Shown one piece after another: positions 22,559 to 60,277 of a stretch of DNA of 64,000 nt; position 1 is the stretch's first letter, and each line of letters starts with the position of its first letter. The notes beneath the pieces are model-generated. The model was not told where the DNA came from. It saw only the letters and a list, made by a program, of their open reading frames with translations, and ran no database searches. Origin of the DNA: Bacillus marasmi (GTDB lineage: Bacteria; Bacillota; Bacilli; Bacillales; Cytobacillaceae); the NCBI RefSeq assembly GCF_902168435.1, contig NZ_LR656164.1, forward strand, positions 124,001 to 188,000. The letters are read 5' to 3'. The translations under genes and the position numbers were made by a program.

Positions 22559-23190
22559 ACGTAAAACGTGTCTACGTGCCCAACCCGGGCTTAAAAACAC
22601 CAAAACGGTAACGTAAAGCGTGTCTACGTGCCCAATCCCGGCTCAAAACCAGCAAAACGGTAACGTATAACGTGTCTACGTGCCCAATCCGGGCTCGAAA
22701 CCATCAAAACGGTCACGTAAAACGTGTTTACGTGCCCAACCAGGGCTCGAAAACAGCAAAACGGTCACGTAAAACGTGTCTACGTGCCCAATCCCGGCTC
22801 AAAACCATCAAAACGGTCACGTAAAACGTGTTTACGTGCCCAACCAGGGCTCGAAAACAGCAAAACGGTCACGTAAAACGTGTCTACGTGCCCAATCCGG
22901 GCTCGAAAACAGCAAAACGGTAACGTAAAGCGTGTCTACGTGCCCAATCCGGGATCAAAACCATCAAAACGGTCACGTAAAACGTGTTTACGTGCCCAAC
23001 CAGGGCTCGAAAACAGCAAAACGGTAACGTAAAGCGTGTCTACGTGCCCAATCCGGGATCAAAACCATCAAAACGGTAACGTAAAACGTGTTTACGTGCC
23101 CAACCAGGGCTCGAAAACAGCAAAACGGTCACGTAAAACGTGTCTACGTGCCCAATCCGGGCTCAATAACTCAAATACGGTAACGTAAAG
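22559..23190. repeat. Tandem array 1: twelve 52-bp units
   Basis: Twelve head-to-tail units begin at 22559, 22611, 22663 and so on to 23131, with a broken thirteenth at 23183. Every unit has the inverted pair ACGTA...TACGT (outer CACGTA/TACGTG in most), separated by nine bases, then CCCAA-C/T-C-GGG-like and CAAAACGGT blocks. Two unit types alternate in the right half (TCTACG...CAATCCGGG and TTTACG...CAACCAGGG), indicating duplication as 104-bp dimers. No unit-to-unit unique spacers and no ORF. The following stretch, 23191-23502, is A+T-rich with no gene or clear structure. Confidence 0.92.
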
Positions 23191-23502
23191 AATCCTATGT
23201 CTCAAATTTTTATTAAAAATAGAACTGATTTCCACCGAAAAGATAGAAATTTTTCGAAAAATAACTCAGTTTTTTTCTCGAAAACTAAAATTTTATAGTC
23301 AAACTTAAACATCTCCTCAAAAAATATGATATAACTCCTTTCCACCATGGCCATCTCCTAAATAATCATTCCGTTTTGCCTGCTGTTTTATAACATCAAG
23401 AAAAATTTTTTATTGTTTTTATACAAAAATGAAGCCTAAAGGATTGAAAAGTTGTCGAATTATTCCTACAATTGTAAGAAAGGCTTAAATTGGGGGATGG
23501 AA

Positions 23503-24264
23503 ATGAATACTGCATACAAAATTGAAGAAATGCCACAGGGATTTCTACTATTTACAATTACTAGACCAGAAAAACGCAATGCTATTAACTATGATGTTTT
23601 AGAAGGACTTGAAATCGTCATTGAGCAAATGAAAGATCCTAAATACAAAGCACTAATGATTACCGGTGAAGGGGAAAAAGCGTTTTGTTCAGGCGGTGAC
23701 TTGTCTGTTTTTCACACATTGAAAACTGAAGAACAGGCATATGGAATGCTTTCAAAAGCATCAAAAATCCTTGTTAAATTACTAATGCTTTCAAAACCAA
23801 CGATTGCATTAATTAACGGAACGGCAATGGGAGGCGGCTGCGAACTAGCTACTGCATGTGATTTCCGTTTGGCTAAAGCAGGTGTAAAAGCGGGCTTCGT
23901 CCAAGGAACTCAAGCCATTACAACAGGCTGGGGTGGCGGAACGATGTTGTTCGAAAAAATCTCTGCCTCAAGTGCGATGAAGTTATTAATGGAAGCGAAA
24001 ATGATGGAAGTGGAAAAACTAGAAGAACTAGGTTATATCGATGCTATATTTGAAGGAGATTTAATCGAAAATAGCCTTGAATACTTAAAAAATATTCTAG
24101 CGATTGAAGCAGGAGTTTTAGAGGCATACAAAACAATGCTAGTTCGAAAATGGACACAGTCTGACCTAGCTGCAAGAATTGAAGCGGAGGTTCGCACGAA
24201 TTCTCGTCTATGGGAATCGGAAGCGCATCATTCAGTAGTAAATAAATTTTTGGCGAAAAAGTAA
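23503..24264 (+). CDS. Enoyl-CoA hydratase/isomerase (crotonase) family protein
   Basis: A 253-residue crotonase-fold protein. It has the N-terminal strand pattern ITRPEKRNAINYDVLE near residue 17, the CoA-pocket AFCSGGDLSVF near 62 and the oxyanion/first-Glu region GTAMGGGCELATACDFRLA near 107. Where hydratases have the second catalytic Glu (FGxPE), this protein has AGFVQGTQAITTGWGGG, so classical hydratase activity is doubtful and another CoA chemistry is possible. ATG 23503 has GGGGGATGG upstream. It lies between array 1 and the rsfA-like gene, a place where B. subtilis has no such gene. Confidence 0.85.
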   Translation: MNTAYKIEEMPQGFLLFTITRPEKRNAINYDVLEGLEIVIEQMKDPKYKALMITGEGEKAFCSGGDLSVFHTLKTEEQAYGMLSKASKILVKLLMLSKPTIALINGTAMGGGCELATACDFRLAKAGVKAGFVQGTQAITTGWGGGTMLFEKISASSAMKLLMEAKMMEVEKLEELGYIDAIFEGDLIENSLEYLKNILAIEAGVLEAYKTMLVRKWTQSDLAARIEAEVRTNSRLWESEAHHSVVNKFLAKK

Positions 24265-24332
24265 ATTAGGTTTTACAGTCTATCTTTTCTAGTGAATGCA
24301 TATGTATGAATAAAAACACTAGGAGGGATACG

Positions 24333-24959
24333 ATGCCAACAACACGCCAAGATGCTTGGACGCAGGATGAGGATCTCTTACTCGCGGAGGTTATTCTTCG
24401 TCATATTCGTGATGGAGGTACACAACTGCAAGCGTTTGAGGAAGTAGGACGGCAATTATCACGGACCGCTGCAGCCTGTGGGTTTCGTTGGAATTCTTAC
24501 GTAAGGAAGCAATATAAGTCTGGTATCGAACTTGCTAAGAAGCAGCGTAAAGAATTAAAAAAGCAAGCAGTTCCAGATTTTGATGATGATATAGAGACAA
24601 TTGTTGAAGAGGCTAAGGCCCAAGTTCATTCTTTGTCTAGGCAAAAGGAAATCTCTTTTCCATTTGTTCTTGATTATATTAAAGAGCTTTATGAAAAAGC
24701 AAAAGAACACCGAGATTATTCTGAAAATCTTGATGGCTACAAGTCACAAATAAAATTACTTGAAAAAAAGATGAATGAATTATCGGCTGAAAATGAAAAA
24801 CTTACAAAAGAGTTAAAAATGATTGAAGAGGATTACCGTGCTTTAATTGAAATTATGGAACGAGCTAGAAAAATGGTTGTTTTACAGGAAGAGGACCGAC
24901 AGCAAAAAGTAAAATTTCAAATGGATAAAAACGGCAATCTTGAACGTGTTGAAAAATAA
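24333..24959 (+). CDS. ylbO: RsfA-family prespore transcription regulator (YlbO-like)
   Basis: A 208-residue regulator with an N-terminal Myb/SANT-like helix-turn-helix (RQDAWTQDEDLLLAEVILRH to GFRWNSYVRKQY, residues about 5-60) and a C-terminal coiled coil (about 130-190). This is the RsfA/YlbO architecture; RsfA tunes sigma-F/sigma-G regulons in the forespore, and YlbO (GerR) works in the mother cell. Synteny after rpmF favours ylbO. ATG 24333 has AGGAGGG five bases upstream; the in-frame upstream ATG has none. Confidence 0.85.
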   Translation: MPTTRQDAWTQDEDLLLAEVILRHIRDGGTQLQAFEEVGRQLSRTAAACGFRWNSYVRKQYKSGIELAKKQRKELKKQAVPDFDDDIETIVEEAKAQVHSLSRQKEISFPFVLDYIKELYEKAKEHRDYSENLDGYKSQIKLLEKKMNELSAENEKLTKELKMIEEDYRALIEIMERARKMVVLQEEDRQQKVKFQMDKNGNLERVEK

Positions 24960-24986
24960 AAAGCGGATGAACATATCCGCTTTTTC
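24958..24986. terminator. Bidirectional terminator between ylbO and ylbP
   Basis: AAAAAGCGGAT and ATCCGCTTTTT form a perfect 11-bp stem with a 6-base loop between convergent genes. Confidence 0.85.
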
Positions 24987-24992
24987 CTTCTT

Positions 24993-25466
24993 TTAGCCCA
25001 TTTGTTCTTCAAATCCTGCTGGGAACCATATTAGCGGGTTTTCGCCGAAATCACGGCTTGTGTCGTAATGTACAGGGGAGAAGCCCATCTTACCCCAAAA
25101 ATCCACTGATTTCACGCGTGGGTTTGTTTTAATAGGCAAACGGAAGCTTTTTGCATAATTAACTAATGCTGTTCCTAAGCCTCTGCCTTGGTAATCTGAT
25201 AAGACTTCAAGTTTCCATAGTTCAAGATAATTTTTTGGAGGGGAAAAATAACGATTATATTTTGCATCAACCTCGTATAAACTCATTCTGGCTACAAGCA
25301 TGTCTGCCAAATAGATTCCATAAAACGGGGAAGCGCTATCATTTTCAATGATATTGGCTTGAAGGTCTTCCAGCATAGATAGCTCTTGTAAACCATATTC
25401 CTTAAACTTACGAAAATCCTCTAGTGTTTTGTAATTTACTTTTAATTTTTCCACCTTTACGTCCAC
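24993..25466 (-). CDS. ylbP: GNAT-family N-acetyltransferase YlbP
   Basis: A 157-residue GNAT acetyltransferase. The acetyl-CoA pyrophosphate-binding loop is LSDYQGRGLGTALVNYA near residues 89-105, preceded by the beta-4 strand LELWKLEVL and followed by VKSVDFWGKMGFSPV. The N-terminal half (DLQANIIENDSASPFYGIY) is typical of the YlbP group. Substrate unknown. GTG start 25466 with AGGAGGAAA seven bases upstream. Orientation and position match B. subtilis. Confidence 0.92.
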   Translation of the reverse strand: MDVKVEKLKVNYKTLEDFRKFKEYGLQELSMLEDLQANIIENDSASPFYGIYLADMLVARMSLYEVDAKYNRYFSPPKNYLELWKLEVLSDYQGRGLGTALVNYAKSFRLPIKTNPRVKSVDFWGKMGFSPVHYDTSRDFGENPLIWFPAGFEEQMG

Positions 25467-25758
25467 TTAGTTTCCTCCTATTTAATTAGTCCAAAACCTG
25501 TGAAACAATACCAGCAATAATATTACTATTTTTCGTAATAATCCAATTATATACTAAAAAGTCAAAAAATTCTGCATTTTTAATATTCTCAATCGGAGTA
25601 CCATGTTGCTTGTGGATTGGGTTTTCGTCAATATTCAGAATTTTTAGGTACTCTGCCAGAAAAAATCGGTTTAAAAAAGTTTATAGAATGTAAATGTTCA
25701 ATTTCCCATTTTGTTGTTACAATTAAAACTATCATAGCTAAAAATGGGGTTATTGTTT

Positions 25759-26658
25759 ATGAAAATTGGAATCATTGGTGGTGGCTCTATCGGGCTGCTA
25801 TTTGCTTATTACTTAAATCGAGCAGCTTCTGTAACACTGTATACGAGAACCCAGGAGCAAGCTGATAAAATTAATCGAGAAGGACTATGTTTAAAATATC
25901 GCGATCATCTTCATCATACATATATTTCAGGAAAAACGGTTGATAGCTGGCAGGGGCAAGAGGATTTAACGATTATTACTGTTAAACAATATCAGCTTGA
26001 AGCTGTATTTGAAAAAATTCGCCAGCACTCTAATACAGAAGGACGATTATTATTTTTGCAAAATGGAATGGGCCATATCAAGCATCTAAAAGAAATCACG
26101 GATCGTGAGGTTTTCGTTGGCTCGGTTGAGCATGGTGCATACCGCAATAGTGAAAATATCGTTACCCATACTGGTGAGGGAGTTACAAGACTTGCGGTTA
26201 TTAATGGCGATCGCTCATTTTTAGAGGGCTTTCAGATAAAAATGCCAGAGTCTTTTCCGTTTTTGATTGAAGATCATTATTATCAAATGCTCGTAAAAAA
26301 ACTCATTGTTAATGCAATCATTAACCCATTAACTGCGGTTCTTAAGGTTCCAAACGGAGAGCTAATCACGAATCCTCATTACCATAAGAGTATGAAGAAT
26401 CTGTTTCAGGAATTGATGAGCGTACTCGATGTTGAGCATCATGACAAGTTATTTAAACATGTACTAAATGTGTGTGAGAACACTTCAAGCAATCGCTCCT
26501 CGATGCTGAAGGATATCGAGAGTCATCAGCCGACAGAGATCGATGCAATATTAGGTTATGTGCTAGAAGAAGCAGAAAAAAAGGGAATTCAAGTTCCACT
26601 CATCGAAACATTTTATCACCTCATTAAAGGACTCAGTATTGGTAAAGGGGCGGAATAA
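25759..26658 (+). CDS. ylbQ: 2-dehydropantoate 2-reductase (YlbQ/PanE family)
   Basis: NADPH-dependent ketopantoate reductase family, giving pantoate for pantothenate and coenzyme A. The 299 residues have the Rossmann loop MKIGIIGGGSIGLL at the start, ITVKQYQLEAV near 77 and LQNGMGH near 100 (the QNG motif). The helical C-terminal domain holds KLIVNAIINPLTAVL with catalytic Lys and Asn. ATG 25759 starts directly at the Rossmann motif; a GGGG lies about nine bases upstream. The stop abuts the DUF3397 start. The 292-base gap before it holds no clear gene. Confidence 0.9.
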   Translation: MKIGIIGGGSIGLLFAYYLNRAASVTLYTRTQEQADKINREGLCLKYRDHLHHTYISGKTVDSWQGQEDLTIITVKQYQLEAVFEKIRQHSNTEGRLLFLQNGMGHIKHLKEITDREVFVGSVEHGAYRNSENIVTHTGEGVTRLAVINGDRSFLEGFQIKMPESFPFLIEDHYYQMLVKKLIVNAIINPLTAVLKVPNGELITNPHYHKSMKNLFQELMSVLDVEHHDKLFKHVLNVCENTSSNRSSMLKDIESHQPTEIDAILGYVLEEAEKKGIQVPLIETFYHLIKGLSIGKGAE

Positions 26659-27039
26659 ATGTCGAGCCTTATAGCGAATGTGATTGCAGCAATCATTACA
26701 ATCCCCTTATTAGGTTATATTGTCGTGTTTTCTATTAGTAAACGTATTATGAAGAATCATCGTAGAGCTTTTCATATGGCGATTGATTGGAGTACAGTAT
26801 TTCTTATTTTTGCGGTTCACCATTTAATCATTGTCATTTGGGAACAGTCTTTTTTTTGGCTTCTTGCAATACTAATGATTATTGTGGCAAGTATTTTTGT
26901 TTTGCTTCATTGGAAAATGAAGAATGAAATATTGATTCTACCAATTTTAAAAGGTTTTTGGAGGATGAATTTTTTATTATTTTTTGTCGCGTATATATTT
27001 TTAATCACTTTTGGTTTGATTCAAAGATTGAGCAGTTAA
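26659..27039 (+). CDS. DUF3397 membrane protein
   Basis: A 126-residue membrane protein with four hydrophobic helices (about residues 5-27, 44-62, 67-85, 103-122). It matches the DUF3397 family found before bshC in Bacillus genomes. Conserved features are the basic loop SKRIMKNHRRAFHMAIDW between helices 1 and 2 and WKMKNEILILP. Its ATG follows the ylbQ stop with no gap, so it depends on the ylbQ transcript. Function unknown. Confidence 0.8.
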   Translation: MSSLIANVIAAIITIPLLGYIVVFSISKRIMKNHRRAFHMAIDWSTVFLIFAVHHLIIVIWEQSFFWLLAILMIIVASIFVLLHWKMKNEILILPILKGFWRMNFLLFFVAYIFLITFGLIQRLSS

Positions 27040-27147
27040 AGACTATGGAATCATGATAAAGTAGGCATAGTTTTTTCCTTTTCTATTGTGAAAATGCTAT
27101 ACTCATTAAGGAATTATTATTGTTGTTTAGAAAGGAAGTACAAGTAA

Positions 27148-28782
27148 ATGGAGATGTTAAATCTCTCGCTTCCGGCAAATAACCGGTTCGCAACAGAATA
27201 TTTGGCGCAAACGCCTGATATAATGCAATTGTTTCATTATCAATATCAAAAGCATGCTGATTATATAGATCGAGTAAACGAGTTAGCAGGTAGGAGCTTT
27301 GATAGGGATGCTGTAGCCGAGCATATCAAACAATTTATGGCTCAATTTCCTTCTTCCAATGCTGTGGAGCATTCCTTGGCTAAGCTTAGACAGCCAAATA
27401 GTGTCGTTGTTATTGGCGGGCAACAAGCAGGTGTCCTAACAGGTCCGCTTTACTCAGTCCATAAAGTAATCTCAATTATTGCACTTGCAAAGCAAAAGGA
27501 AGCAGAGTTAGGTATCCCTGTTATTCCAATTTTTTGGATTGCTGGAGAGGATCATGATTATGCTGAAGTAAATCATATTTTTGCAGAAAACGATCAAAAA
27601 ATCGAAAAAATTACTTATCCCCAAGTTGTATTAGAGAAAAAGATGGTGTCAGATATTATCCTTGATAAGGAACAATGTAATTTATGGGTTAAGAAGATTA
27701 TCGAATCATTTGGTGAGACAGAACACACTAAGGAACTATTAGATTTTACTTCTAGGGCAATTGAGAAATCATCGTCAATGGTTGACTTTTTTGCGCAAAT
27801 TATTATGGAAATGTTTAAGGATTTTGGCTTGTTAATTATTGATTCAGGAAATAAAGCGATTCGCAAGCTAGAGCAGGATTATTTTCAATCAATTATTAAT
27901 CATAGTCAATCGTTAACACAAGCCGTACTATCTCAACAAGAAGTCATCAAACGTTTAGGTTTTTCCAACACGATCGAGATGAAAGAAAATGCTGCCAATC
28001 TTTTTTATTATGACGAGAACACAAACTCGCGAAACTTACTAGAGTACGATCAGGAAACGAAGATGTTCATCGATAAAAATTATTCCATCCAATTTTCCTT
28101 GGCTGAATTGCTGGAGATTGCCAATGAAAAACCACATTTATTAAGTAATAATGTGGTCACTCGGCCCTTGACCCAAGAGTGGCTTTTCCCAACCATTGCC
28201 TTTATCGCAGGTCCAGGTGAAATTGCTTATTGGAGTGAGCTTAAACAGGTTTTTGAAATGTTTCAAATAAAGCTCCCGCCGATTGTACCTAGACTTAATA
28301 TTACCTTGCTTGAACGAACAATTGAGACTGATGCCATTGATTTAGGTCTTTCGATAGAGGAAGTGCTAAAAAATGGAGTTTCTTCATATAAGGATGAGTT
28401 TCTTCACTCCGTCAAGGATCCAGAGCTAGAACAGCACTTTTTGAAATTACGACAAGAGTTATCTGAGCATTACGAGGTTATTATTAAAAAAATTGAAGAG
28501 ATTGATCGCGGCCTTGACCCATTAATTAAGAAAAATGAACAGCTTATCCAAAAGCAAATTAAGTTTTTAGAGGATAAGGTTCACGATTCAATTTATCAAA
28601 AGCATGTGGTTAAGTTGAGGAAAATTGATCGGGTTGGTAACGCGCTCAAACCAAATGGTGCACCTCAGGAGCGTATTCTTAATCCGTATTACTTCATTAA
28701 TAAGTATGGCTTTGATTTGATTAAGCAATTGGTCGTACTTGATTATCAATTTGATGGGACGCATAAGCTCATTAAACTATAG
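27148..28782 (+). CDS. bshC: Bacillithiol biosynthesis cysteine-adding enzyme BshC
   Basis: Adds cysteine to glucosaminyl-malate in the last step of bacillithiol synthesis, the low-molecular-weight thiol of Bacillus. The 544-residue protein has the typical GGQQAGVLTGPLYSVHK near residue 90 and FWIAGEDHDYAEVNHIF near 130 (nucleotidyltransferase-like core). A long C-terminal coiled coil (about 425-490, DIRxDPLIKKNEQL-like) and the end LKPNGAPQERILNPYYF complete the family pattern. Start has AAAGGAAG 9 bases upstream. The stop TAG is immediately followed by repeat copy C. Confidence 0.95.
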   Translation: MEMLNLSLPANNRFATEYLAQTPDIMQLFHYQYQKHADYIDRVNELAGRSFDRDAVAEHIKQFMAQFPSSNAVEHSLAKLRQPNSVVVIGGQQAGVLTGPLYSVHKVISIIALAKQKEAELGIPVIPIFWIAGEDHDYAEVNHIFAENDQKIEKITYPQVVLEKKMVSDIILDKEQCNLWVKKIIESFGETEHTKELLDFTSRAIEKSSSMVDFFAQIIMEMFKDFGLLIIDSGNKAIRKLEQDYFQSIINHSQSLTQAVLSQQEVIKRLGFSNTIEMKENAANLFYYDENTNSRNLLEYDQETKMFIDKNYSIQFSLAELLEIANEKPHLLSNNVVTRPLTQEWLFPTIAFIAGPGEIAYWSELKQVFEMFQIKLPPIVPRLNITLLERTIETDAIDLGLSIEEVLKNGVSSYKDEFLHSVKDPELEQHFLKLRQELSEHYEVIIKKIEEIDRGLDPLIKKNEQLIQKQIKFLEDKVHDSIYQKHVVKLRKIDRVGNALKPNGAPQERILNPYYFINKYGFDLIKQLVVLDYQFDGTHKLIKL

Positions 28783-28962
28783 GCTGTGTTAAATATGGAT
28801 GTTGATTTCCGCTGCAGGCACTTCGCTTTCCATGGGGCTAACTGGGAGCCTCCTCGGCGCTTTGCGCCTGTGGGGTCTCCCATGCCAGCTACTCCTATAG
28901 GAGTCTTCGTGCCTTCCGCTTCAATCAACTTACCAAAAATCAACGCTATGCATTAACTCAAC
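28783..28962 (-). repeat. ~180-bp interspersed repeat, copy C (inverted)
   Basis: Inverted relative to copies A and B. Its left end GCTGTGTTAA begins at the base after the bshC stop codon; the right end is diverged (TTAACTCAAC). The GC-rich core GCCTCCTCGGCGCTTTGCGC and its partner blocks match the complement of A and B. Confidence 0.85.
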
Positions 28963-28974
28963 CAATTAATAAAA

Positions 28975-29008
28975 AGAGGACTAACTCTTAGGGAGTTAGT
29001 CCTTTTTT
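28975..29008 (+). terminator. Terminator downstream of bshC and repeat copy C
   Basis: AGGACTAACTC pairs with GAGTTAGTCCT over a 5-base loop, followed by six T. From here to 29272 the sequence is A+T-rich with no gene. Confidence 0.85.
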
Positions 29009-29272
29009 GTGAGGGTGGCTTTTGTTAAAAATCGACAATATTATGACGATGGTCTTGGGTATAAGAGCTTATTTTTAGTGAAAAAACAGTTAATTTAGAA
29101 AATCTTAGTTTTATTTGCTTTTTTATGGAGTTGTAGATTTCCAAAAAACATGAAAAAATCAGGGTTTTTTTAAGGTGAATCAATTTTTGTCGCAAGAAAA
29201 CAATAAAAACACTGTGGAAAAACGCATTGATAAAGAAGGGATTCACTACCATGTAGAGAATACTAAAAATAA

Positions 29273-29318: not shown

Positions 29319-29328
29319 GGTAGTGCAT

Positions 29329-29760: not shown

Positions 29761-29803
29761 CCTCTCCAGAAGAGATTCATTAGAAAGGTGGAATGGAAAT
29801 TTG

Positions 29804-47543: not shown

Positions 47544-48683
47544 ATGTTGGAGTTTGATACAAATTTAGATCAACTAGCTACAATAAAAGTCATCGGCGTT
47601 GGTGGCGGCGGAAACAATGCGGTAAATCGAATGATTGAGCATGGTGTTCAAGGTGTTGACTTTATTGCAGTTAATACTGATGCTCAAGCATTAAATTTAT
47701 CAAAAGCAGAAATCAAAATGCAAATTGGTGGAAAATTGACTCGTGGACTAGGAGCGGGTGCTAATCCTGAAGTTGGGAAAAAAGCAGCCGAAGAAAGTCG
47801 CGAACAAATAGAAGAAGCTTTAAAAGGTGCTGATATGGTCTTTGTTACTGCCGGTATGGGTGGTGGAACAGGAACAGGTGCAGCACCAGTAATAGCGCAA
47901 ATTGCCCGTGAATTAGGGGCACTAACTGTAGGTGTTGTAACTCGCCCATTTACCTTTGAAGGTAAGAAGCGTGCCTCACAAGCAGCTGGTGGTATTTCTG
48001 CTATGAAGGAAGCTGTCGATACACTGATTGTTATTCCAAATGATCGCTTATTAGAAATTGTTGATAAGAGTACTCCGATGCTAGAAGCGTTCCGTGAAGC
48101 GGATAATGTACTTCGCCAAGGGGTACAAGGTATATCTGACTTAATTGCTGTACCGGGGTTAATTAACCTTGACTTTGCCGACGTAAAAACAATCATGTCC
48201 TCTAAAGGTTCTGCATTGATGGGTATCGGTGTAGCATCAGGTGAGAATCGTGCAACTGAAGCAGCTAAAAAAGCCATTTCATCTCCATTACTAGAAACTT
48301 CTATTGATGGTGCACAAGGTGTGCTAATGAATATCACAGGTGGAACAAATTTAAGCCTTTATGAAGTTCAGGAAGCAGCCGATATCGTTGCAACCGCTTC
48401 TGATCAGGAAGTGAATATGATTTTTGGTTCTGTTATTAACGAGAACTTAAAAGACGAAATTGTTGTAACAGTCATTGCAACAGGTTTTAACGAAGAAGTT
48501 ATTCAACCTAAAATGACTCGTCCAGCGTTTGGTGGAGTTAAGCCAGGTTTAAATTCAATTAAGCGCGAACCAAAACGAGAAGAAACTCAAACTGAAGCAC
48601 CTCGTCCAGTTCAAACGCAGCAAACAACTGAGGATACATTAGATATCCCAACGTTCTTAAGAAATCGCAATCGTAGACGTTAA
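47544..48683 (+). CDS. ftsZ: Cell division protein FtsZ
   Basis: Tubulin-like GTPase that forms the Z-ring. The 379 residues have [14 protein letters not shown] near 19, the tubulin signature [10 protein letters not shown] near 104, and the T7-loop region [11 protein letters not shown] near 207 that supplies the catalytic Asp. After a Gln/Thr/Glu-rich linker comes the C-terminal peptide [13 protein letters not shown], which binds FtsA and SepF. Start with AGGAGG seven bases upstream. It ends at a strong terminator, directly followed by tandem array 2. Confidence 0.98.
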
Positions 48684-48698
48684 TTTTATATGATAAAA

Positions 48699-48729
48699 AA
48701 ACAAGGTCATAATCTGGCCTTGTTTTTTT
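48699..48729 (+). terminator. Terminator after ftsZ
   Basis: AACAAGGTCA pairs with TGGCCTTGTT (one G-T pair), followed by a T-run. Array 2 begins within a few bases. Confidence 0.9.
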
Positions 48730-48730
48730 A

Positions 48731-49500
48731 TGCTCAATGAGGGCTATTGGCTACTTCGTTTACAATGGTCCCCACAAACCACATAGTCAATGGGAGCGAT
48801 TGGCTACATAATTTGCACTGGTCCCCGCAAACCACGTAGTCAATGGGGTCGATTGGCTACATAATTTGCACTGGTCCCCGCAAACCACGTAGTCAATGGG
48901 GTCTATTGGCTACATAATTTGCACTGTCCCCCGCAAACCACGTAGTCAATGGGAGCGATTGGCTACATAATTTGCACTGGTCCCCGCAAACCACGTAGTC
49001 AATGGGGTCGATTGGCTACATAATTTGCACTGGTCCCCGCAAACCACGTAGTCAATGGGGTCTATTGGCTACATAATTTGCACTGTCCCCCGCAAACCAC
49101 GTAGTCAATGGGAGCGATTGGCTACATAATTTGCACTGGTCCCCGCAAACCACGTAGTCAATGGGGTCGATTGGCTACATAATTTGCACTGGTCCCCGCA
49201 AACCACGTAGTCAATGGGGTCTATTGGCTGCTTAATTTGCACTGTCCCCCGCAAACCACGTAGTCAATGGGGTCTATTGGCTACTTAATTTGCACTGTCC
49301 CCGCAAACCACGTAGTCAATGGGGTCTATTGGCTGCTTAATTTGCACTGTCCCCCGCAAACCACGTAGTCAATGGGAGCGATTGGCTACTTAATTTGCAA
49401 TGGTCCCCGCAAACCACGTAGTCAATGGGAGCGATTGGCTACTTAATTTGCAATGGCCCCCGCAAACCAAGTAGTCAATGAGCGAAATTGGTTACTAAAT
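48731..49500. repeat. Tandem array 2: about fourteen 53-bp units
   Basis: TCAATG marks unit starts at 48734, 48787, 48840 and onward every 53 bases to 49475; one interval (49264 to 49316) is 52 by loss of a C. Each unit has the inverted pair GTAGTCAAT / ATTGGCTAC around a 7-base loop that occurs as GGGAGCG, GGGGTCG or GGGGTCT. Those three types repeat in order three times (48787-49264), a 159-bp higher-order unit. End units are more diverged. No ORF and no variable spacers. In B. subtilis this ftsZ-spoIIGA interval holds bpr. Confidence 0.92.
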
Positions 49501-52936: not shown

Positions 52937-53758
52937 ATGGAGCCTTTTATTTTAAAAAGTTCATCATTTTTTGAAATTGATGAATGGACTAGAGAATTTC
53001 CTGATTTAGTTGCCGGTTTTACAACGAAGCATGGGGGGATTAGTAATGCCCCATTTGCTTCGTTGAATTTTGGGTTTCATGTTGGTGATGACCAAAATAC
53101 TGTCTGTGAAAATAGATCCCGGTTGGCGAGGATTATTGATTTTCCACTTAATCAATGGGTTGGTGCTGAGCAGACCCATGAAATTAACATTCGCAAAGTG
53201 ACAAAATCAGACTGTGGCTATGGAGCATTTTCTTATGATGATGCTTTTAAAGCGACTGATGGATTTTATACAACAAATGAAGGGATTCTTTTAACGCTTG
53301 CCTATGCTGACTGTGTACCTTTATATTTTTTTGCACCGAAACAGAAGATAATTGGAGTTGCTCATGCCGGCTGGAAGGGGACAGTATCGGGAATTGGAGC
53401 GGAAATGATTTCGATTTTACAAAGGAATGAAGCTGTCCGTCCAGAAGAGGTACAAGTAGTAATTGGACCATCGATTTGCGGAAATTGTTATGTCGTAGAT
53501 GAACCTGTCATATCTCATTTGCAAAATAGGCTAGAAGCTGTCGAAGAAAAACCGTATAATTTAATAGGAGACAATCAATACCAACTTAATCTGCGCGAAA
53601 CAAACCGTTTTTTATTAATCGAGGCTGGTGTGCAGGAAAATCATATAAAACAGACACAATTGTGTACGAGTTGTCATCATGATGTGTTTTTTTCACATCG
53701 GAAGGACAAAGGAAAAACTGGAAGAATGATTAGTTTTATTGGCTGGAAGGAGGCCTAG
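52937..53758 (+). CDS. pgeF: Peptidoglycan editing factor PgeF (YlmD, laccase-domain)
   Basis: Multicopper-oxidase-like (DUF152, YfiH/FAMIN) protein of 273 residues. Members act as purine nucleoside phosphorylase/adenosine deaminase-like enzymes, and E. coli YfiH prevents misincorporation of L-Ser in the stem peptide. Zinc/catalytic residues lie in VGAEQTHEINIRKV near 75, TLAYADCVPLYFF near 118, VAHAGWKGT near 139 and HHDVFFSHRKD near the end. Starts the ylmDEFGH group; ylmE follows eight bases later. Confidence 0.93.
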   Translation: MEPFILKSSSFFEIDEWTREFPDLVAGFTTKHGGISNAPFASLNFGFHVGDDQNTVCENRSRLARIIDFPLNQWVGAEQTHEINIRKVTKSDCGYGAFSYDDAFKATDGFYTTNEGILLTLAYADCVPLYFFAPKQKIIGVAHAGWKGTVSGIGAEMISILQRNEAVRPEEVQVVIGPSICGNCYVVDEPVISHLQNRLEAVEEKPYNLIGDNQYQLNLRETNRFLLIEAGVQENHIKQTQLCTSCHHDVFFSHRKDKGKTGRMISFIGWKEA

Positions 53759-53766
53759 TAATTGAA

Positions 53767-54462
53767 ATGAGCGTTACAGCAAATTTACAAGCAATCCAGC
53801 AAAAAATCCAAGCTGCTTGTGAAAAAACAGGCCGAGGGCCGTCTGAAATAAAGATTATTGCCGTTACGAAATACGTGAGTGTAAAACGTGCGCAAGAAGC
53901 AGTAGAGGCTGGCGTGGCTCATTTAGGTGAGAACCGAGATGAAGGTCTGCTTGAAAAATGGTCTATTTTACAGGACAAGCCTACTTGGCATTTTATCGGT
54001 ACGCTGCAAACAAGAAAGGTTAAAAATATTATCGATAAGGTTGACTATATTCATTCACTAGACCGGCTATCGCTTGCTGCAGAAATAAACAAGCGGACGA
54101 AGAAACCTATAAATTGCTTTGTACAGGTCAATACTTCTGGAGAAGAGTCAAAACATGGTCTTAATCAGGATGAAGTAATTGATTTTGTAAAATCGTTATC
54201 AGCGTATCCAAATATTATCGTTGCAGGCTTAATGACAATGGCACCAAATACAGAGGATGAAGCAATTTTACGAAGTTGCTTTCAAAACTTAAGAAAGCTA
54301 AAGAATTCTATTACTGATTTGAATCTCGACTATGCTCCATGTAAGGAGTTATCGATGGGAATGTCAAATGACTTTGAGATTGCAGTTGAAGAAGGCGCGA
54401 CAATGGTTCGAATCGGTACGGCGTTAGTCGGAAATGAGTCTTTAGGAGGTGAACAAAGATGA
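53767..54462 (+). CDS. ylmE: YggS-family PLP-binding protein YlmE
   Basis: Pyridoxal-phosphate homeostasis protein (YggS/PROSC family) of 231 residues with a single TIM-barrel. The PLP lysine lies in IIAVTKYVS near 37; HLGENRDEG near 58, WHFIGTLQTRKVK near 76 and ELSMGMSNDFEIAVEEG near 196 are family landmarks. It controls free PLP rather than catalysing a reaction. A ribosome site (AAGGAGG) lies at the end of pgeF, rather far (about 13 bases). Its stop overlaps the sepF start (ATGA). Confidence 0.94.
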   Translation: MSVTANLQAIQQKIQAACEKTGRGPSEIKIIAVTKYVSVKRAQEAVEAGVAHLGENRDEGLLEKWSILQDKPTWHFIGTLQTRKVKNIIDKVDYIHSLDRLSLAAEINKRTKKPINCFVQVNTSGEESKHGLNQDEVIDFVKSLSAYPNIIVAGLMTMAPNTEDEAILRSCFQNLRKLKNSITDLNLDYAPCKELSMGMSNDFEIAVEEGATMVRIGTALVGNESLGGEQR

Positions 54463-54902
54463 GCATCAAATCGAAACTTAAAACATTCTTTTTCTTAGAT
54501 GATGAGGATTATGAATATGAGGAAGTTGAGGACAATAATATTCAGGAGCCTAGGCGTGAAATAAAGCCATCTCCGCAAAATGTATCTAAGCAAAATATCG
54601 TCAGTCTTCAAAGTGTTCAAAAGTCGTCTAAGCTTATCTTATGTGAACCTCGTGTTTATGCTGAAGCACAGGAAATAGCTGATCATTTGAAAAATCGCCG
54701 CTCGGTTGTGGTAAACCTGCAGCGCAGTGATGCTAATCATGCAAGACAGATTGTAGACTTTTTAAGTGGCACAGTCTATGCGATTGGCGGAGAAATTTCA
54801 AAAATAGGCGCTGATATATTCCTTTGTACTCCAGATAATGTTGAGGTATCAGGTAATATTACCGAATTTCTACAAGAAAATGACATCCATCATTCGAGGT
54901 GA
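54459..54902 (+). CDS. sepF: Cell division protein SepF
   Basis: Membrane anchor for FtsZ that forms ring-like polymers at the septum. The 147 residues have an N-terminal amphipathic membrane helix (KSKLKTFFFLDDEDYEYEE), an acidic/Gln-rich linker and a C-terminal globular domain (about 65-145, with VVNLQRSDANHARQIVDFL and FLCTPDNVEV). It overlaps ylmE by four bases and precedes ylmG by seven. It complements FtsA encoded about 8 kb upstream. Confidence 0.95.
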   Translation: MSIKSKLKTFFFLDDEDYEYEEVEDNNIQEPRREIKPSPQNVSKQNIVSLQSVQKSSKLILCEPRVYAEAQEIADHLKNRRSVVVNLQRSDANHARQIVDFLSGTVYAIGGEISKIGADIFLCTPDNVEVSGNITEFLQENDIHHSR

Positions 54903-54909
54903 TTAATTA

Positions 54910-55173
54910 ATGAGTTTTGTATTTGAGGTATTAGTCCAGATTATTCAAATATATTCTTGGGCATTGATAATTTATATTTTATTGTCGTGGTTTCCTAATG
55001 CACGTGAATCAGGGTTTGGCCGTTTTTTAACAAATATTTGTGAGCCATACCTAGAGCCGTTCCGTCGGATTATTCCACCGCTAGGAATGATTGATATTTC
55101 ACCAATCGTTGCTATTCTCGTACTCCGATTTGCAACAAGTGGATTATATCAATTATTTGCTTGGTTAGCATAA
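54910..55173 (+). CDS. ylmG: YggT-family membrane protein YlmG
   Basis: An 87-residue membrane protein with two hydrophobic segments: residues about 8-28 ([20 protein letters not shown]) and 55-80 ([15 protein letters not shown]). Between them is the conserved loop [21 protein letters not shown]. The YggT family is linked to division/chloroplast nucleoid organisation through genetics, without a known mechanism. Start with GAGGTG upstream, seven bases after sepF. Confidence 0.93.
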
Positions 55174-55177
55174 AGAC

Positions 55178-55210
55178 AAAGGCTCTCCTTATTGAGCAGA
55201 GCCTTTTTTC
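55178..55210 (+). terminator. Terminator after ylmG
   Basis: AAAGGCTCT pairs with AGAGCCTTT around an 11-base loop, followed by TTT. It lies before ylmH. Confidence 0.8.
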
Positions 55211-55245
55211 ATTGCTTCATAAGTAACATGATGAAGGGTGCTTTC

Positions 55246-56019
55246 ATGAATATTTATCAGCATTTTCGACCGGAAGAGCGCGGCTTTATCGATACTATTA
55301 TCGATTGGAAGGGCTATGTGGAAGCTTCCTATTCTCCAAAGCTAACCGACTTTCTAGACCCGCGTGAACAGCAAATTGCCAAAACAATCATTGGGGAGCA
55401 TGGGGATGTCCTCATTTCATTCTTTGGTGGAGTGGAAAATAGTGAACGGAAACGGGCCATTCTTGCTCCTGACTATTTTCAGGCTACTAACGATGAATTC
55501 AAGATCTCTCTTTATGAAATCGAATATCCTTCAAAATTTGTAACAATTGAGCACCGCCAAGTATTGGGCTCATTAATGTCGTTAGGACTAAAACGGAGTA
55601 AGTTTGGGGATATTTTATTTCACGGAAGCACTGTCCAATTTTTCGCGACAATGGAAATTCGTGATTACATTGAGATGGAATTAAAATCGATTGGCAGGGC
55701 ACAAGTTCGACTAAAGGAAATTCCGTTAGAAAACGCCTTGATGGTGGATGAGAATTGGCAAGAACTTTCAATTACCAGTTCATCACTACGCTTGGATACT
55801 TTAGTGTCTTCCATCTATCATATTTCTCGCCAAAAAGCTCAAGTTTTAATAAGCCAAGGTTTAGTTAAAGTAAACTGGACAATTGTTGAATCTGTATCGT
55901 TTGAATGTGGTGAAGGGGATACATTGTCGGTAAGAGGCTATGGTCGAGTTAAGATTTCTGCAATCGAAGGAAAAACAAAAAAGGACAAATGGCGAATTTT
56001 AGCGAAACTACTAAAATAA
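55246..56019 (+). CDS. ylmH: S4-domain RNA-binding protein YlmH
   Basis: A 257-residue protein with an N-terminal unique domain (NIYQHFRPEERGFIDTIIDW) and a C-terminal S4 RNA-binding domain (about 180-240: SSLRLDTLVSSIYHISRQKAQVLI is the region; VNW and VRGYGR follow). B. subtilis YlmH has been linked to ribosome-associated quality control with RqcH. ATG 55246 is preferred, giving the usual short start with AAGGGTG eight bases upstream; longer in-frame ORF begins inside the terminator. Confidence 0.9.
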   Translation: MNIYQHFRPEERGFIDTIIDWKGYVEASYSPKLTDFLDPREQQIAKTIIGEHGDVLISFFGGVENSERKRAILAPDYFQATNDEFKISLYEIEYPSKFVTIEHRQVLGSLMSLGLKRSKFGDILFHGSTVQFFATMEIRDYIEMELKSIGRAQVRLKEIPLENALMVDENWQELSITSSSLRLDTLVSSIYHISRQKAQVLISQGLVKVNWTIVESVSFECGEGDTLSVRGYGRVKISAIEGKTKKDKWRILAKLLK

Positions 56020-56100
56020 ATTTCGTTTATAAAGAAGGAATATAAAGGGTACTGTCGAATATTTGAATATACATACGAGTCTTGATTTGGAGGTGGCGTT

Positions 56101-56613
56101 ATGCCGTTAACACCGTTAGATATACACAATAAGGAATTCAGCAAGGGATTTCGAGGCTATGATGAAGATGAAGTAAACGAATTCCTTGATCAAGTTATCA
56201 AAGATTATGAATTATTAATCCGAGAAAAGAAGGAATTAGAAGAAAGATTAAAGGATCAAACTGAGAGACTAGGTCACTTTTCAAGCATTGAAGAGACCTT
56301 AAATAAATCGATTGTGATTGCGCAGGAAGCGGGCGAGGAAGTTAGACGTAATGCGCAAAAGGAAGCAAAGCTCATTATTAAAGAAGCAGAAAAAAATGCT
56401 GATCGTATTGTAAACGAATCTTTAACAAAGGCAAGAAAAATTGCCTTGGAAATAGAAGATTTGAAAAAACAATCTAAAGTTTTCCGTACTCGTTTTAAAA
56501 TGCTAATTGAAGCGCAGCTTGATTTATTAAAAAATGACGATTGGGATCATTTATTACAATACGAATTAGATGCATCTGAATTAAAAGCTGCAGAAGAAGA
56601 TTCTTTAGCGTAA
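56101..56613 (+). CDS. divIVA: Pole and septum protein DivIVA
   Basis: Coiled-coil protein that marks negatively curved membrane at septum and poles and recruits MinJ/MinD and, in sporulation, RacA. The 170 residues start with the lipid-binding region MPLTPLDIHNKEFSKGFRGY, then DEDEVNEFLDQVIKDYE, followed by coiled coil to about 150 and an acidic end. Start with GGAGGTGG six bases upstream. It follows ylmH and precedes ileS, as in B. subtilis. Confidence 0.96.
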   Translation: MPLTPLDIHNKEFSKGFRGYDEDEVNEFLDQVIKDYELLIREKKELEERLKDQTERLGHFSSIEETLNKSIVIAQEAGEEVRRNAQKEAKLIIKEAEKNADRIVNESLTKARKIALEIEDLKKQSKVFRTRFKMLIEAQLDLLKNDDWDHLLQYELDASELKAAEEDSLA

Positions 56614-56672
56614 CTTGACGAACGAAAGGCAAATCGCATATAATGTCATCACAAAAGAATGTTAATAATTTT

Positions 56673-56930
56673 TGACGATGATAGGGACAGTACGTTTTTT
56701 CAATAACTTTTAAAAGCGAACCGGGGGCGGTGAAAGCCCGGGAAAGTTGAAAATTCGAAAAATCACCCTTGAGTTCCAAGTTGAACGCTATTTAAGGATA
56801 GTCTAAGTAAGCTATGGCGTATATTCACGTTACGAATAACTAGTGGACAGAAGCATTTTGCTCTGTCAATTAGGGTGGTACCGCGGGAAACCTTCTCGTC
56901 CCTTTTTTGTGGGATGAGAAGGTTTTTTTA
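56673..56930 (+). promoter_or_regulatory. T-box riboswitch upstream of ileS
   Basis: The leader has the stem I start GACGATGATAGGGACAGTA (56674), a likely isoleucine specifier ATC at 56762-56764, the T-box AGGGTGGTACCGCG at 56872-56885 and a terminator AACCTTCTCGTCCC / GGGATGAGAAGGTT (56889-56922) with a long T-run. Uncharged tRNA-Ile would pair with the specifier and T-box, stabilise the antiterminator and allow ileS expression. Confidence 0.95.
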
Positions 56931-57016
56931 TGTTTATTTTTATTAATGGTACCGTTATTTGGAATGCGAATCACTCAAAAAGTCTATATAAATAACATTC
57001 CATAGGAGGAAAAGAA

Positions 57017-59776
57017 ATGGAGTATAAAGATACATTATTAATGCCGCAAACTGAGTTCCCAATGCGTGGAAACCTTCCAAAGCGCGAACCAGACATGCAG
57101 GCAAAGTGGGAAGAAATGAATATTTACAAAATGGTACAAGAACGAACAAAAGGCAGACCGATGTTTGTTCTTCATGACGGACCGCCATATGCAAACGGCG
57201 ATATCCACATGGGCCACGCTTTAAACAAAATCCTTAAAGATTTCATCGTACGCTATAAATCAATGAGCGGTTTCCAAGCCCCATATGTACCTGGTTGGGA
57301 TACGCATGGTTTACCAATTGAGCAAGCATTAACAAATAAAGGCGTAAAACGGAAGGAAATGAGCATCGCTGAATTCCGTAAGCTTTGTGAGAAATATGCA
57401 TATGAGCAAATCGAAAACCAACGCGGTCAATTTAAACGTCTAGGTGTACGCGGTGATTGGGAAAATCCATACATCACACTTAAGCCAGAATACGAAGCTC
57501 AGCAAATTAAAGTGTTTGGTGAAATGGCAAAGAAAGGCTATATTTACAAAGGTCTTAAGCCAGTTTATTGGTCTCCATCCAGTGAGTCAGCACTTGCTGA
57601 AGCTGAAATTGAATATCAAGATAAGCGCTCTGCTTCCATTTATGTGGCGTTTAATGTGAAGGACGGAAAGGGTGTCTTGGATAGCGATACAAAAATCGTC
57701 ATCTGGACAACAACTCCTTGGACGATTCCAGCTAACCTTGGTATCTCCGTTCACCCTGACTTAACTTATGTAGTTGTTGAAGTAGACGGAAATAAATTTG
57801 TTGTGGCAGAAGCTTTATTAGAGTCAGTAACTAATGAAATTGGCTGGGAAAACCCAAATGTTGTTAATAAAGTGAAGGGTAGCGAGCTTGAATATGTTGT
57901 TGCACTTCATCCAATTTATGGTCGTGAATCTCTTGTTATGCTTGGTGAGCATGTAACAACTGATGCCGGTACTGGCTGTGTTCACACTGCACCAGGCCAC
58001 GGGGAAGATGACTTCCACGTTGGGCAAAAATATGGTCTTGATGTCTTGAATCCAGTAGATGATAAAGGACACATGACTCATGAAGCGCCTGGATTTGAAG
58101 GTTTATTTTACGAAAATGCTAATAAGCCAATCACTGAAAAGCTTGAAGAAAATGGTGCATTATTAAAGCTTTCATTTATCACACACTCTTATCCGCATGA
58201 TTGGAGAACTAAAAAACCGGTTATCTTTAGAGCAACTGCCCAATGGTTTGCTTCAATTAAGGATTTCCGCAATGAGCTCCTTGAAGCGGTAAAGGAAACA
58301 AAATGGGTACCTGAATGGGGCGAAACTCGTCTATTCAATATGGTACGTGATCGTGGCGATTGGTGTATTTCACGTCAACGTGCATGGGGTGTACCAATTC
58401 CTGTATTCTATGCTGAAAATGGTGACGCAATCATTACGGATGAAACGATTGCACATGTATCTGCAATGTTCCGTGAACATGGTTCAAATATTTGGTTTGA
58501 GCGTGAAGCTAAGGACTTGCTTCCAGAAGGCTTTACTCATCCAGGTAGCCCGAACGGTGAATTTACGAAAGAAACGGATATCATGGATGTTTGGTTTGAC
58601 TCAGGTTCATCTCACCAAGCAGTTTTAGAAGAGCGTGATGACTTGCAACGTCCGGCCGATCTTTACTTAGAAGGATCTGACCAATATCGTGGCTGGTTTA
58701 ACTCATCATTATCAACTGGTGTTGCGGTTACTGGTAAAGCTCCATATAAAGGTGTATTGAGCCACGGCTTTGCTCTTGACGGTGAAGGTAGAAAAATGAG
58801 TAAATCAATCGGAAACGTTGTTGTACCAGCAAAGGTAATGCAACAGCTTGGTGCCGATATCCTGCGTTTATGGGTTGCTTCTGTTGATTATCAGGCAGAT
58901 GTTCGCGTATCTGATGCAATTCTTAAACAGGTTGCCGAAGTTTACCGTAAAATCCGTAACACATTCCGTTTCTTGCTTGGAAATCTTGCTGATTTCAATG
59001 CTGAGACAGATGCGGTTGCGTTCGAGGAGCTTCGCGAAGTGGATCAATTTATGTTGGTCAAATTAAATAAAGTGATTAAAACTGTTCGCGATTCTTATGA
59101 AAATTATGAATTTGCAACTATCTACCATGCAGTTAATAATTTCTGTACATTAGACTTAAGCTCATTCTATTTAGATTTCGCAAAAGACGTACTATATATC
59201 GAAACAAGTAATAATCATGAGCGTCGCGCCATTCAAACTGTACTTCATGAAAGCTTAATCGCCTTAGTGAAGCTAGTAACGCCAATTCTCCCTCATACTG
59301 CTGATGAGGTTTGGGGTTATATTCCAACTGCGACAGAAGTGAGTGTCCAATTAACGGATCTTCCTGAATACCAGGAGCTTCCAAATGCAAGCAAGCTTGA
59401 GGAAAAATGGACATTATTTATGAAGCTTCGTGATGATGTGTTAAAAGCGTTAGAGGAAGCTCGTAATGAAAAGGTAATTGGAAAATCTTTAACAGCTAAA
59501 GTAACGCTTTATGTTAATGAAGCAACAAGAGAATTGCTCGATTCTATTGATGAGAATTTGATGCAGCTCTTTATTGTATCAGGCTTCGAAGTGGCTGGCA
59601 CGTATGGAGATGCACCAGAAAATGCTGTGAAGCTAGACAATGCGGCGATTGTGGTCACAAAAGCGGAAGGCGAAACTTGTGAACGTTGCTGGACAGTTAC
59701 GACTGAAGTCGGTCAGGATAGTGACCACCCAACGCTTTGCCCTCGCTGTGCAACAGTGGTAAAAGAAAATTATTAA
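57017..59776 (+). CDS. ileS: Isoleucyl-tRNA synthetase
   Basis: Class I synthetase that charges tRNA-Ile. The 919 residues show the HIGH-type motif [15 protein letters not shown] near 57-70, the editing CP1 domain ([13 protein letters not shown] near 235, [15 protein letters not shown] near 325), DxWFDSG in [11 protein letters not shown] near 528 and KMSKS near 594. A C-terminal zinc site is given by CERCW near 888 and CPRC near 908. Bacterial (mupirocin-sensitive type) length. Start with AGGAGG eight bases upstream. Controlled by the upstream T-box and followed by a terminator and array 3. Confidence 0.98.
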
Positions 59777-59794
59777 GAAATGTGTTTTGATTGT

Positions 59795-59823
59795 GGCTAA
59801 CCGTTTTTGGTTAGCCCTTTTTT
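59795..59823 (+). terminator. Terminator after ileS
   Basis: GGCTAACC pairs with GGTTAGCC over GTTTTT, followed by CTTTTTTT. Array 3 starts three bases later. Confidence 0.9.
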
Positions 59824-59825
59824 CA

Positions 59826-60277
59826 TTACCCAAGAGATCGAGAAAAGTGAGCTAGGGTAATGAAAAAGTGATTTGAATTACCCTAGAGCCAAAAAAGAGT
59901 CGCTAGGTAAATACAAAAAGGATTTGAATTACCCTAGAGCCAAAAAAGAGTCGCTAGGTAAATACAAAAGTGATTTGAATTACCCTAGAGCCAAAAAAGA
60001 GCCGCTAGGTAAATACAAAAGTGATTTGAATTACCCTAGAGCCAAAAAAGAGTCGCTAGGTAAATACAAAAAGGATTTGAATTACCCTAGAGCCCCAAAA
60101 GACGCGCTAGGTAAATACAAAAAGGATTTGAATTACCCTAGAGCCCCAAAAGACGCGCTAGGTAAATACAAAAGTGATTTGAATTACCCTAGAGCCAAAA
60201 AAGACGCGCTAGGTAAATACAAAAGTGATTTGAATTACCCTAGAGCCCCAAAAGACGCGCTAGGTAAATACAAAAAG
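59826..60277. repeat. Tandem array 3: eight 51-bp units plus a degenerate first unit
   Basis: GATTTGAATTACCC begins units at 59870, 59921, 59972, 60023, 60074, 60125, 60176 and 60227 (period 51). A diverged unit, ATTACCC...GAGCTAGGGTAATG, lies at 59826-59869. Each unit has the imperfect inverted pair TTACCCTAGAGC / GCTAGGTAA. The unit-to-unit changes fall mainly in the loop between the arms and in AAAAG/AAAGT before the next unit. Because 51 is a multiple of three the array is open as an ORF of 17-residue repeats, discussed separately. Confidence 0.92.

What the first reader, a model, noticed from the sequence alone, without database searches (positions are those of the whole stretch)
22559..60277. 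Three unrelated tandem arrays share period (~52 bp), one dyad per unit and placement behind a terminator
Arrays at 22559-23190 (12 x 52 bp), 48731-49500 (about 14 x 53 bp) and 59826-60277 (8-9 x 51 bp) have different sequences but the same design. Each unit has one inverted repeat (ACGTA/TACGT; GTAGTCAAT/ATTGGCTAC; TTACCCTAGAGC/GCTAGGTAA), and each array begins within about ten bases of the rho-independent terminator of an essential plus-strand gene (rpmF, ftsZ, ileS). 51-53 bp is close to five turns of B-DNA (5 x 10.5), so the dyads recur on the same helix face. Possible roles (inference): phased binding sites for a nucleoid or topology protein, a buffer for supercoils behind active genes, extended 3'-end RNA structure, or a mobile minisatellite class. 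I know no described family that matches.
Basis: partly seen in the sequence, partly recalled or inferred. Interest (0 to 1): 0.88.

Follow-up and report, generated by a model that had tools for sequence, protein, structure and literature searches.

The report
Helix-phased DNA repeat arrays behind genes
This relative of Bacillus carries many short repeated DNA blocks, mostly placed after gene ends, whose length and A/T pattern follow the turn of the double helix, which suggests sites where a protein bends or wraps the DNA; I found no earlier description of them.

Summary
The three arrays are real and belong to a larger class. TRF on 700 kb of the same genome gives 25 sites of 51-53 bp arrays, 2.0% of that DNA. 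A covariance model of one subfamily hits 92 of 151 genomes of the same taxonomic family, 12 of them with one unit only. Units differ in sequence but share a design: a 27-bp dyad (23 of 49 52-bp arrays with at least 8 of 9 pairs, 0.10 expected), arms that covary, few indels, and an A/T-dinucleotide wave strongest at 10.4 bp and phase-locked to the dyad. Dyad-free 20-42 bp arrays share the wave. G.T and A.C departures are balanced, 31 versus 39, against an RNA stem. Arrays lie behind gene 3' ends (1 of 27 divergent), but terminators are no commoner there than behind other genes (9 of 20 versus 56 of 100). Sense orientation is a tendency. Best reading: helix-phased DNA bending or wrapping sites, perhaps for gyrase; the protein is inferred. 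The ileS array lacks the 10-bp wave.

The parts
22326..22499 (+). rpmF (ribosomal protein L32), upstream gene of array A
22511..22558 (+). predicted intrinsic terminator of rpmF with the following T-rich bases
   Evidence: hairpin scan, dG -25.3; coordinates read
22559..23189 (+). array A: 12.1 x 52 bp
   Evidence: TRF; 18 further BLAST places in the genome, some overlapping; no array in the syntenic gap of the closest sampled congener
22607..22633 (+). example 27-bp dyad of array A (9-bp arms, 9-bp centre)
47544..48683 (+). ftsZ, upstream gene of array B
48695..48729 (+). predicted intrinsic terminator of ftsZ
   Evidence: hairpin scan, dG -15.3; coordinates read
48734..49480 (+). array B: 14.1 x 53 bp
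   Evidence: TRF; 8 further BLAST places in the genome, some overlapping
48836..48860 (+). example dyad of array B
57017..59776 (+). ileS, upstream gene of array C
59795..59823 (+). predicted intrinsic terminator of ileS
   Evidence: hairpin scan, dG -14.1; coordinates read
59824..59862 (+). degenerate first unit of array C, directly after the T-tract
   Evidence: sequence
59863..60279 (+). array C: 8.2 x 51 bp
   Evidence: TRF; 2 further overlapping BLAST places in the genome; lacks the 10-bp A/T wave
59878..59911 (+). example dyad of array C

Best explanation
These are DNA-level architectural sites. Each 51-53 bp unit is about five helical turns long. In the 52-bp class its A/T patches recur every 10.4 bp and the dyad centre sits in a G/C patch, half a turn out of phase. 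Repeated head to tail, such units should bend or wrap easily in one direction. I propose that a wrapping protein, most likely DNA gyrase and otherwise a nucleoid protein, is recruited to these arrays behind gene 3' ends, where transcription-driven positive supercoils arise, much as BIME-2 arrays bind gyrase in E. coli. Shown: array design, few indels, dyad covariation, 10.4-bp phase in the 52-bp class, no RNA-type wobble bias, location bias. Inferred: real curvature, the bound protein, any effect on supercoiling.
For: A/T-dinucleotide power over 65 units is highest at the 5th harmonic, 10.4 bp (z 13.1; the next are 4.4 at 5.2 bp and 4.1 at 4.3 bp); G/C z 10.5 there. Observed/shuffled ratio near 10.4 bp: 52-bp units 2.47 (n=49), 53-bp 1.95 (n=13), 21-bp 2.81 (n=18), 20-bp 2.14 (n=9), 42-bp 6.56 (n=12, partly the same arrays as the 21-bp set); array-free intergenic 52-mers 1.23 (1500 of 2882), coding 52-mers 1.07 (n=224), REP-like 118-126 bp units 0.49 (n=5). 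Phase is coherent with the dyad, R 0.95, n=41. Indel/substitution events are 37/1061 in 57 arrays versus 290/1540 in 79 array-free orthologous gaps. Arm columns vary in 19%, loop 40%, spacer 42%, over 60 arrays and 416 units. Of 27 array rows in 700 kb, 20 are codirectional, 6 convergent, 1 divergent; 18% of gap DNA is divergent. Passages of PMC6379681: E. coli gyrase motif with two periodic wings, A/T in phase with the helix, well-phased DNA bound better, BIME-2 as strong gyrase sites.
Against: No binding, bending or supercoiling data. An A-tract measure (AAA/TTT) is not specific: z 8.2 at 10.4 bp but 8.8 at 4.3 bp and 7.1 at 13 bp. The three 51-bp units give a ratio of 0.61 and array C no signal (p 0.74); array B p 0.085, array A p 0.013. 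Six arrays of distant relatives give z 1.2. Phase coherence may reflect common descent of subfamilies. The indel comparison sets distinct events inside TRF-defined arrays, where indels are penalised, against between-species gaps. Terminators are not enriched. Avoiding promoters would explain the placement too. PMC6379681 passages say that downstream gyrase attraction is not hard-wired in sequence and lies 2-5 kb further on. Wrapping does not explain why arm sequences differ yet stay complementary.
Confidence: 0.4

Rival explanations
1. Self-amplifying or non-autonomous DNA-hairpin minisatellite: the dyad is recognised as folded single-stranded DNA by a recombinase or transposase, or promotes slippage, and arrays sit behind genes only because insertion is harmless there.
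For: Arms covary while their sequence is free; in gap C13:291112 this genome and the closest congener carry different, each complementary, inner arms; turnover is high, 2 of 9 52-class arrays with a syntenic gap have an array there in that congener.
Against: The three window arrays have no other place above 75% identity. Y1 transposases are not needed: G006 and G007 have no Y1 match but 10 and 32 unit hits. Fixed mismatches persist at pairs 3-4. It does not predict a 10.4-bp wave shared with dyad-free 20-42 bp arrays.
Confidence: 0.25
2. Phased binding sites for a nucleoid protein other than gyrase (HBsu-like, SMC loader, polar roadblock).
For: Helical phase, dyad, arm conservation and orientation tendency.
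Against: 14 different inner-arm sequences among 27 own-genome rows with at least 7 pairs, so one sequence-specific protein cannot read the arms; no candidate protein was identified.
Confidence: 0.2
3. RNA element: read-through transcripts form a string of hairpins that act on mRNA 3' ends.
For: Sense orientation: 11 of 11 subfamily A arrays with both neighbours called codirectional, and 2 of 3 more with one neighbour cut off; 10 of 13 in loci from other genomes. A-rich on the sense strand in 36 of 44 codirectional arrays versus 96 of 156 control gaps.
Against: No G.U excess: 31 G.T versus 39 A.C departures, 20 versus 23 in an earlier overlapping set; no Rfam match in the window's arrays; RNA does not predict a 10.4-bp A/T wave.
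Confidence: 0.05
4. Passive minisatellites made by replication slippage, without function.
For: Tandem, locus-specific, homogenised within loci, variable between congeners, as STAR loci are distinct per locus (passages of PMC3532100).
Against: Periods of intergenic arrays cluster at about 20-21, 40-42 and 51-53 bp, few indels, helical phase.
Confidence: 0.08

Closest known systems
BIME-2 / REP arrays (E. coli)
   Same: Tandem palindromic intergenic arrays; BIME-2 bind gyrase strongly (passages of PMC2817692 and PMC6379681)
   Different: Head-to-tail units without alternating orientation, no shared GTAG-type tag in the aligned dyads, free arm sequences, 10.4-bp A/T wave; arrays also occur in genomes without a Y1 transposase match
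STAR elements (Staphylococcus)
   Same: Intergenic direct repeats of about 50 nt, locus-specific spacers, copy-number change, unknown function (passages of PMC3532100)
   Different: STAR has a fixed 14-bp GC-rich motif, found in 0 of 68 arrays here; here symmetry and period are kept, not sequence
MIRU (Mycobacterium)
   Same: Intergenic tandem repeats, many of 51-54 bp, oriented with transcription (recalled, not tested)
   Different: No sequence comparison was made; dyads or helical phase in MIRU are not known to me
Gyrase motif and helically periodic intergenic DNA
   Same: A/T and G/C alternate with the helix over two 47-bp wings (passages of PMC6379681 and of preprint PMC12393610); E. coli intergenic AA/TT periodicity near 11 bp (abstract of PMC516772)
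   Different: Here it is built into tandem units at many sites per genome

Membership tests
REP/BIME | GTAG- or CGTC-tagged palindrome consensus | tested here: not met
   the dyad-register alignment, read by eye, has outer K-G ... C-M and free arms without a shared tag; the tag is known to me from the title of PMC3733652 (listing) and passages of PMC2817692
REP/BIME | alternating orientation of palindromes inside the array | tested here: not met
   units are head to tail
REP/BIME | cognate RAYT gene with the repeat beside it | tested here: not met
   two Y1_Tnp genes in the genome; TRF finds no 52-bp array in the 3.5 kb around either; single diverged units would be missed
REP/BIME | gyrase binding (BIME-2) | not testable with these tools
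   needs ChIP or Topo-Seq
STAR element | 14-bp motif T(G/A/T)TGTTG(G/T)GGCCC(C/A) | tested here: not met
   exact motif, both strands: 0 in C13, C23 and the G004 sample, 0 of 68 arrays; motif from a passage of PMC3532100
STAR element | intergenic tandem units of about 50 nt, distinct at each locus | tested here: met
MIRU | sequence homology to mycobacterial MIRU | not tested
   no mycobacterial sequence was fetched
structured RNA family | Rfam match | tested here: not met
   4 matches in the window at gathering thresholds, none in an array
structured RNA family | G.U preferred over A.C in stems | tested here: not met
   31 versus 39 events
intrinsically bent or wrapping DNA | A/T patches in helical phase | tested here: met
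   met for the 52-, 53- and 20-42-bp classes; not for the three 51-bp units, array C, or six arrays of distant relatives
intrinsically bent or wrapping DNA | measured bending or wrapping | not testable with these tools
   needs gel, cyclisation or AFM

The most novel reading that the evidence does not exclude
A family-wide, shape-coded class of chromosomal elements: repeat sequences of 20-21, 40-42 and 51-53 bp without common sequence are selected for the same physical property, helix-phased bendability, with a dyad at a fixed rotational setting in the 52-bp class, and serve as topological wrapping stations for gyrase or a partner behind genes, making up about 2% of the sampled chromosome.
Probability: 0.3. 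Interest if true: 0.9.

Novelty: new variant of a known kind. Interest (0 to 1): 0.7.

Why it matters
If right, DNA shape rather than sequence is the conserved property of a large repeat class, so homology searches miss most of it and helical phase finds it. A Bacillus relative would then offer many natural sites to test whether supercoil handling near gene ends can be written into sequence, a question that the E. coli gyrase study (passages of PMC6379681) answers in the negative for ordinary downstream regions but not for BIME-2.

Tried and rejected
RNA hairpins: first favoured because one subfamily kept its orientation and array B has a T.G pair; dropped after the wobble counts. Absolute rules 'always sense' and 'never divergent': dropped after loci from other genomes (of 30, 10 sense, 3 antisense, 10 convergent, 3 divergent, 4 at an edge) and exceptions in G004 and C23. 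A special link to terminators: dropped after a control. Y1 transposase as the cause: arrays occur in genomes without a match. Essential-gene rule: not upheld. Array C as coding: a 177-aa TTG-start frame exists because 51 bp is 17 codons; not pursued, since 52- and 53-bp units cannot keep a frame. Insertion after terminators like group IIC introns was considered and not tested. Alignment A1 was misaligned and not used. Literature: the searches listed no paper that I recognised as describing this class; most subscription papers are not held.

Rows dropped before counts: a coding 54-bp repeat (C23:254163); array C13:219583 with 2.2 copies, under the cut-off from then on, but counted; rows whose consensus length differed from the period. 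Of 63 non-divergent rows, 6 lay too far from a gene to be scanned. L003 and C23:277459/278071 each give two near-identical rows to the 49 and 41 arrays. In one search convergent and divergent arrays were oriented by A/T skew; its 41 rows were chosen for pairing, which inflates the pair counts (one search has a like-for-like control). One search took 26 of the 30 loci (not L214, L219, L220, L237) plus the 41 rows, and 60 of these 67 gave at least two units.

Corrections to my notes: note 8 says 2 of 11 and 5 of 7 arrays shared with G004; one search gives 2 of 9 and 5 of 8. Note 6 says 12 of 12 sense; one search gives 11 of 11 with both neighbours called. Note 3 says no divergent array; C23:197313 is one. 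Note 8 overstates the 10.4-bp peak as the only one. Distances printed are one base too large.
Full report
Observation. Tandem Repeats Finder confirms the three arrays. Array C is preceded by a degenerate unit that fills the stretch to the ileS T-tract. The window is bases 124001-188000 of contig C13 of a 4.64-Mb draft genome.

Genome-wide class. BLAST finds 18 further places for array A (65-75% identity), 8 for B and 2 for C, several overlapping. TRF on C13:1-400000 and C23:1-300000 gives 12 and 13 array sites, 6911 and 7291 bp. Periods of intergenic arrays in samples of G000, G001, G002 and G004 fall at 20-21, 40-42 and 51-53 bp or multiples, apart from 118-126 bp REP-like copies, one 39-bp pair, one tRNA cluster and one partly coding 121-bp duplication. 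Density varies: one 52-bp array in each 200-kb sample of G001 and G002, 11 rows in 400 kb of G004.

Dyad. In 49 arrays of 52 bp the preferred dyad length is 27 bp and only odd lengths are raised; 23 have at least 8 of 9 Watson-Crick pairs against 0.10 expected from shuffled units treated the same way. In 53-bp arrays lengths 25 to 29 are about equally good and the contrast is weaker. In the 41 of 49 arrays with at least 7 pairs, pair 2 is G-C in 41, pair 1 is G-C (23) or T-A (18), pairs 5-9 pair in 35-40 of 41 with several pair types, and pairs 3 and 4 pair in only 20 and 25, often as T.C or A.G. On 20 ungapped units the covariation score is 0.403 against 0.092 shuffled and at most 0.112 when slid; one of the five measures, pairs changed on both sides, is not unusual (59 of 500 shuffles reach it). 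In gap C13:291112 the arrays of G000 and G004 carry different, each complementary, inner arms, and G000 holds both kinds.

DNA rather than RNA. Over 60 arrays and 416 units, departures from paired consensus are G.T 31, A.C 39, other 76 and double compensation 3; an earlier overlapping set of 28 arrays gave 20, 23 and 47. An RNA stem should favour G.U. Arm columns vary half as often as loop or spacer columns.

Helical phase. A/T-dinucleotide power over 65 units is highest at 10.4 bp (z 13.1), with lesser rises at 5.2 and 4.3 bp (z 4.4, 4.1); G/C z is 10.5; an AAA/TTT measure is raised at many periods and is not specific. Against shuffles the wave is raised in 52- and 53-bp units and in 20-, 21-, 40-, 41- and 42-bp units (n=2 for 40 and 41), weakly in array-free intergenic DNA (1.23), hardly in coding DNA (1.07) and not in the REP-like copies (0.49). 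In dyad register the A/T maxima lie near columns 7, 18, 28, 40 and 49, the dyad centre falls in a G/C patch, and the phase is coherent (R 0.95, n=41; TG-type only 0.94, n=18). Because subfamilies share descent, the Rayleigh p of that call is not a fair probability. Against: the three 51-bp units and array C show no such wave, array B is p 0.085 and array A p 0.013, and six arrays of distant relatives give z 1.2. Indel events relative to substitutions are 5.4-fold fewer in arrays than in array-free orthologous gaps; TRF penalises indels and events were counted differently on the two sides, so the factor is rough.

Placement. In 700 kb, 27 array rows are 20 codirectional, 6 convergent and 1 divergent; divergent gaps hold 18% of gap DNA. 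In 400 kb of G004 the counts are 6, 4 and 1. A terminator is predicted before 32 of 57 scanned non-divergent rows (63 in all), 12 of them within 28 bp, but a control with one fixed scan finds 9 of 20 array-bearing and 56 of 100 array-free gene ends, so arrays mark gene ends, not terminators. In subfamily A, 11 of 11 codirectional arrays with both neighbours called are sense; of three more at an edge, two are sense and one, L138, is not. In 30 loci picked by the covariance model, 29 from other genomes, 10 of 13 codirectional arrays are sense, 10 loci are convergent, 3 divergent, 4 at an edge. Orientation is a tendency. Gene calls are from a simple codon-score script and can miss or add small genes.

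Evolution. No 52-bp array is seen in the 3.1-3.9 kb fetched around the rpmF, ftsZ and ileS gaps of four congeners; G003 has twelve 20-bp units beside lspA, the ileS side. Of C13 arrays with a syntenic gap in G004 (17 of 21), 2 of 9 of the 52-class and 5 of 8 of the 20-42-bp class have an array there; one of the two is of another type, and C13:324134 faces about one degenerate unit. In 80 loci around YlmD, 12 carry an array of at least 110 bp at 16.9-18.0 kb, the position expected for the ileS 3' end (by position, not by naming the gene in each): 6 of 52-53 bp and 6 of 20-41 bp; L081 and L091 have one elsewhere. Some of the 80 loci are too short to reach that position. The covariance model, built from units of G000, G002, G004 and L084, hits 92 of 151 family genomes, 15 of 25 genera, 12 of the 92 with one unit only; E-values are rough and few candidates per genome were scored.

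Mechanism. The data fit phased DNA sites for bending or wrapping. Gyrase is proposed because passages of PMC6379681 describe an E. coli motif with two periodic wings and A/T in helical phase, 35-52 bp fragments thought to wrap the GyrA C-terminal domains, better binding of well-phased DNA, and BIME-2 arrays as strong gyrase sites; preprint PMC12393610 adds wrapping structures (passages). The same PMC6379681 passages say that attraction to regions downstream of genes is not hard-wired in E. coli and lies further downstream, which counts against. The step from phase to protein is inference.

Noticed in passing
G000 C13:216617, 226206, 242777, 314826; C23:196335: Two to three tandem copies of a 118-126 bp REP-like element with GCGGAAGCGG-type ends; it lacks the 10.5-bp A/T wave and looks like a separate repeat.
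   Followed up: partly
G000 C27:254130-254471 and C4:4555-4881: Two RAYT-like Y1 transposase genes of about 200 aa; neither the core of the 118-126 bp element nor a 52-bp array was found in the 3.5 kb around them.
   Followed up: partly
window 59873-60406: Array C is open in one frame (177 aa from TTG) because 51 bp is 17 codons; probably fortuitous.
   Followed up: no
G000 C13:370739-370818: The predicted terminator hairpin of the gene to the right of array C13:369995 resembles that array's own unit, as if a unit had been co-opted as terminator.
   Followed up: no
L187 and L190 (G001): The same long GC-rich interspersed element sits in the gaps upstream of spoIIGA and lspA (the ftsZ and ileS sides) of this congener, so these gaps also take up other repeats.
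   Followed up: no
G000 C13:25105-25327: A 121-bp duplication that seems to encode two copies of a short hydrophobic peptide with a ribosome-binding site (consensus).
   Followed up: no
L056:17010-17300: The ileS 3' gap of Bacillus sp. DNRA2 holds degenerate GCGGACA ... TGTCCGC units in both orientations, perhaps remains of another array.
   Followed up: no
L059: A record titled Chryseobacterium sp. ISL-80 carries a Bacillus-type YlmD region; the label looks wrong.
   Followed up: no
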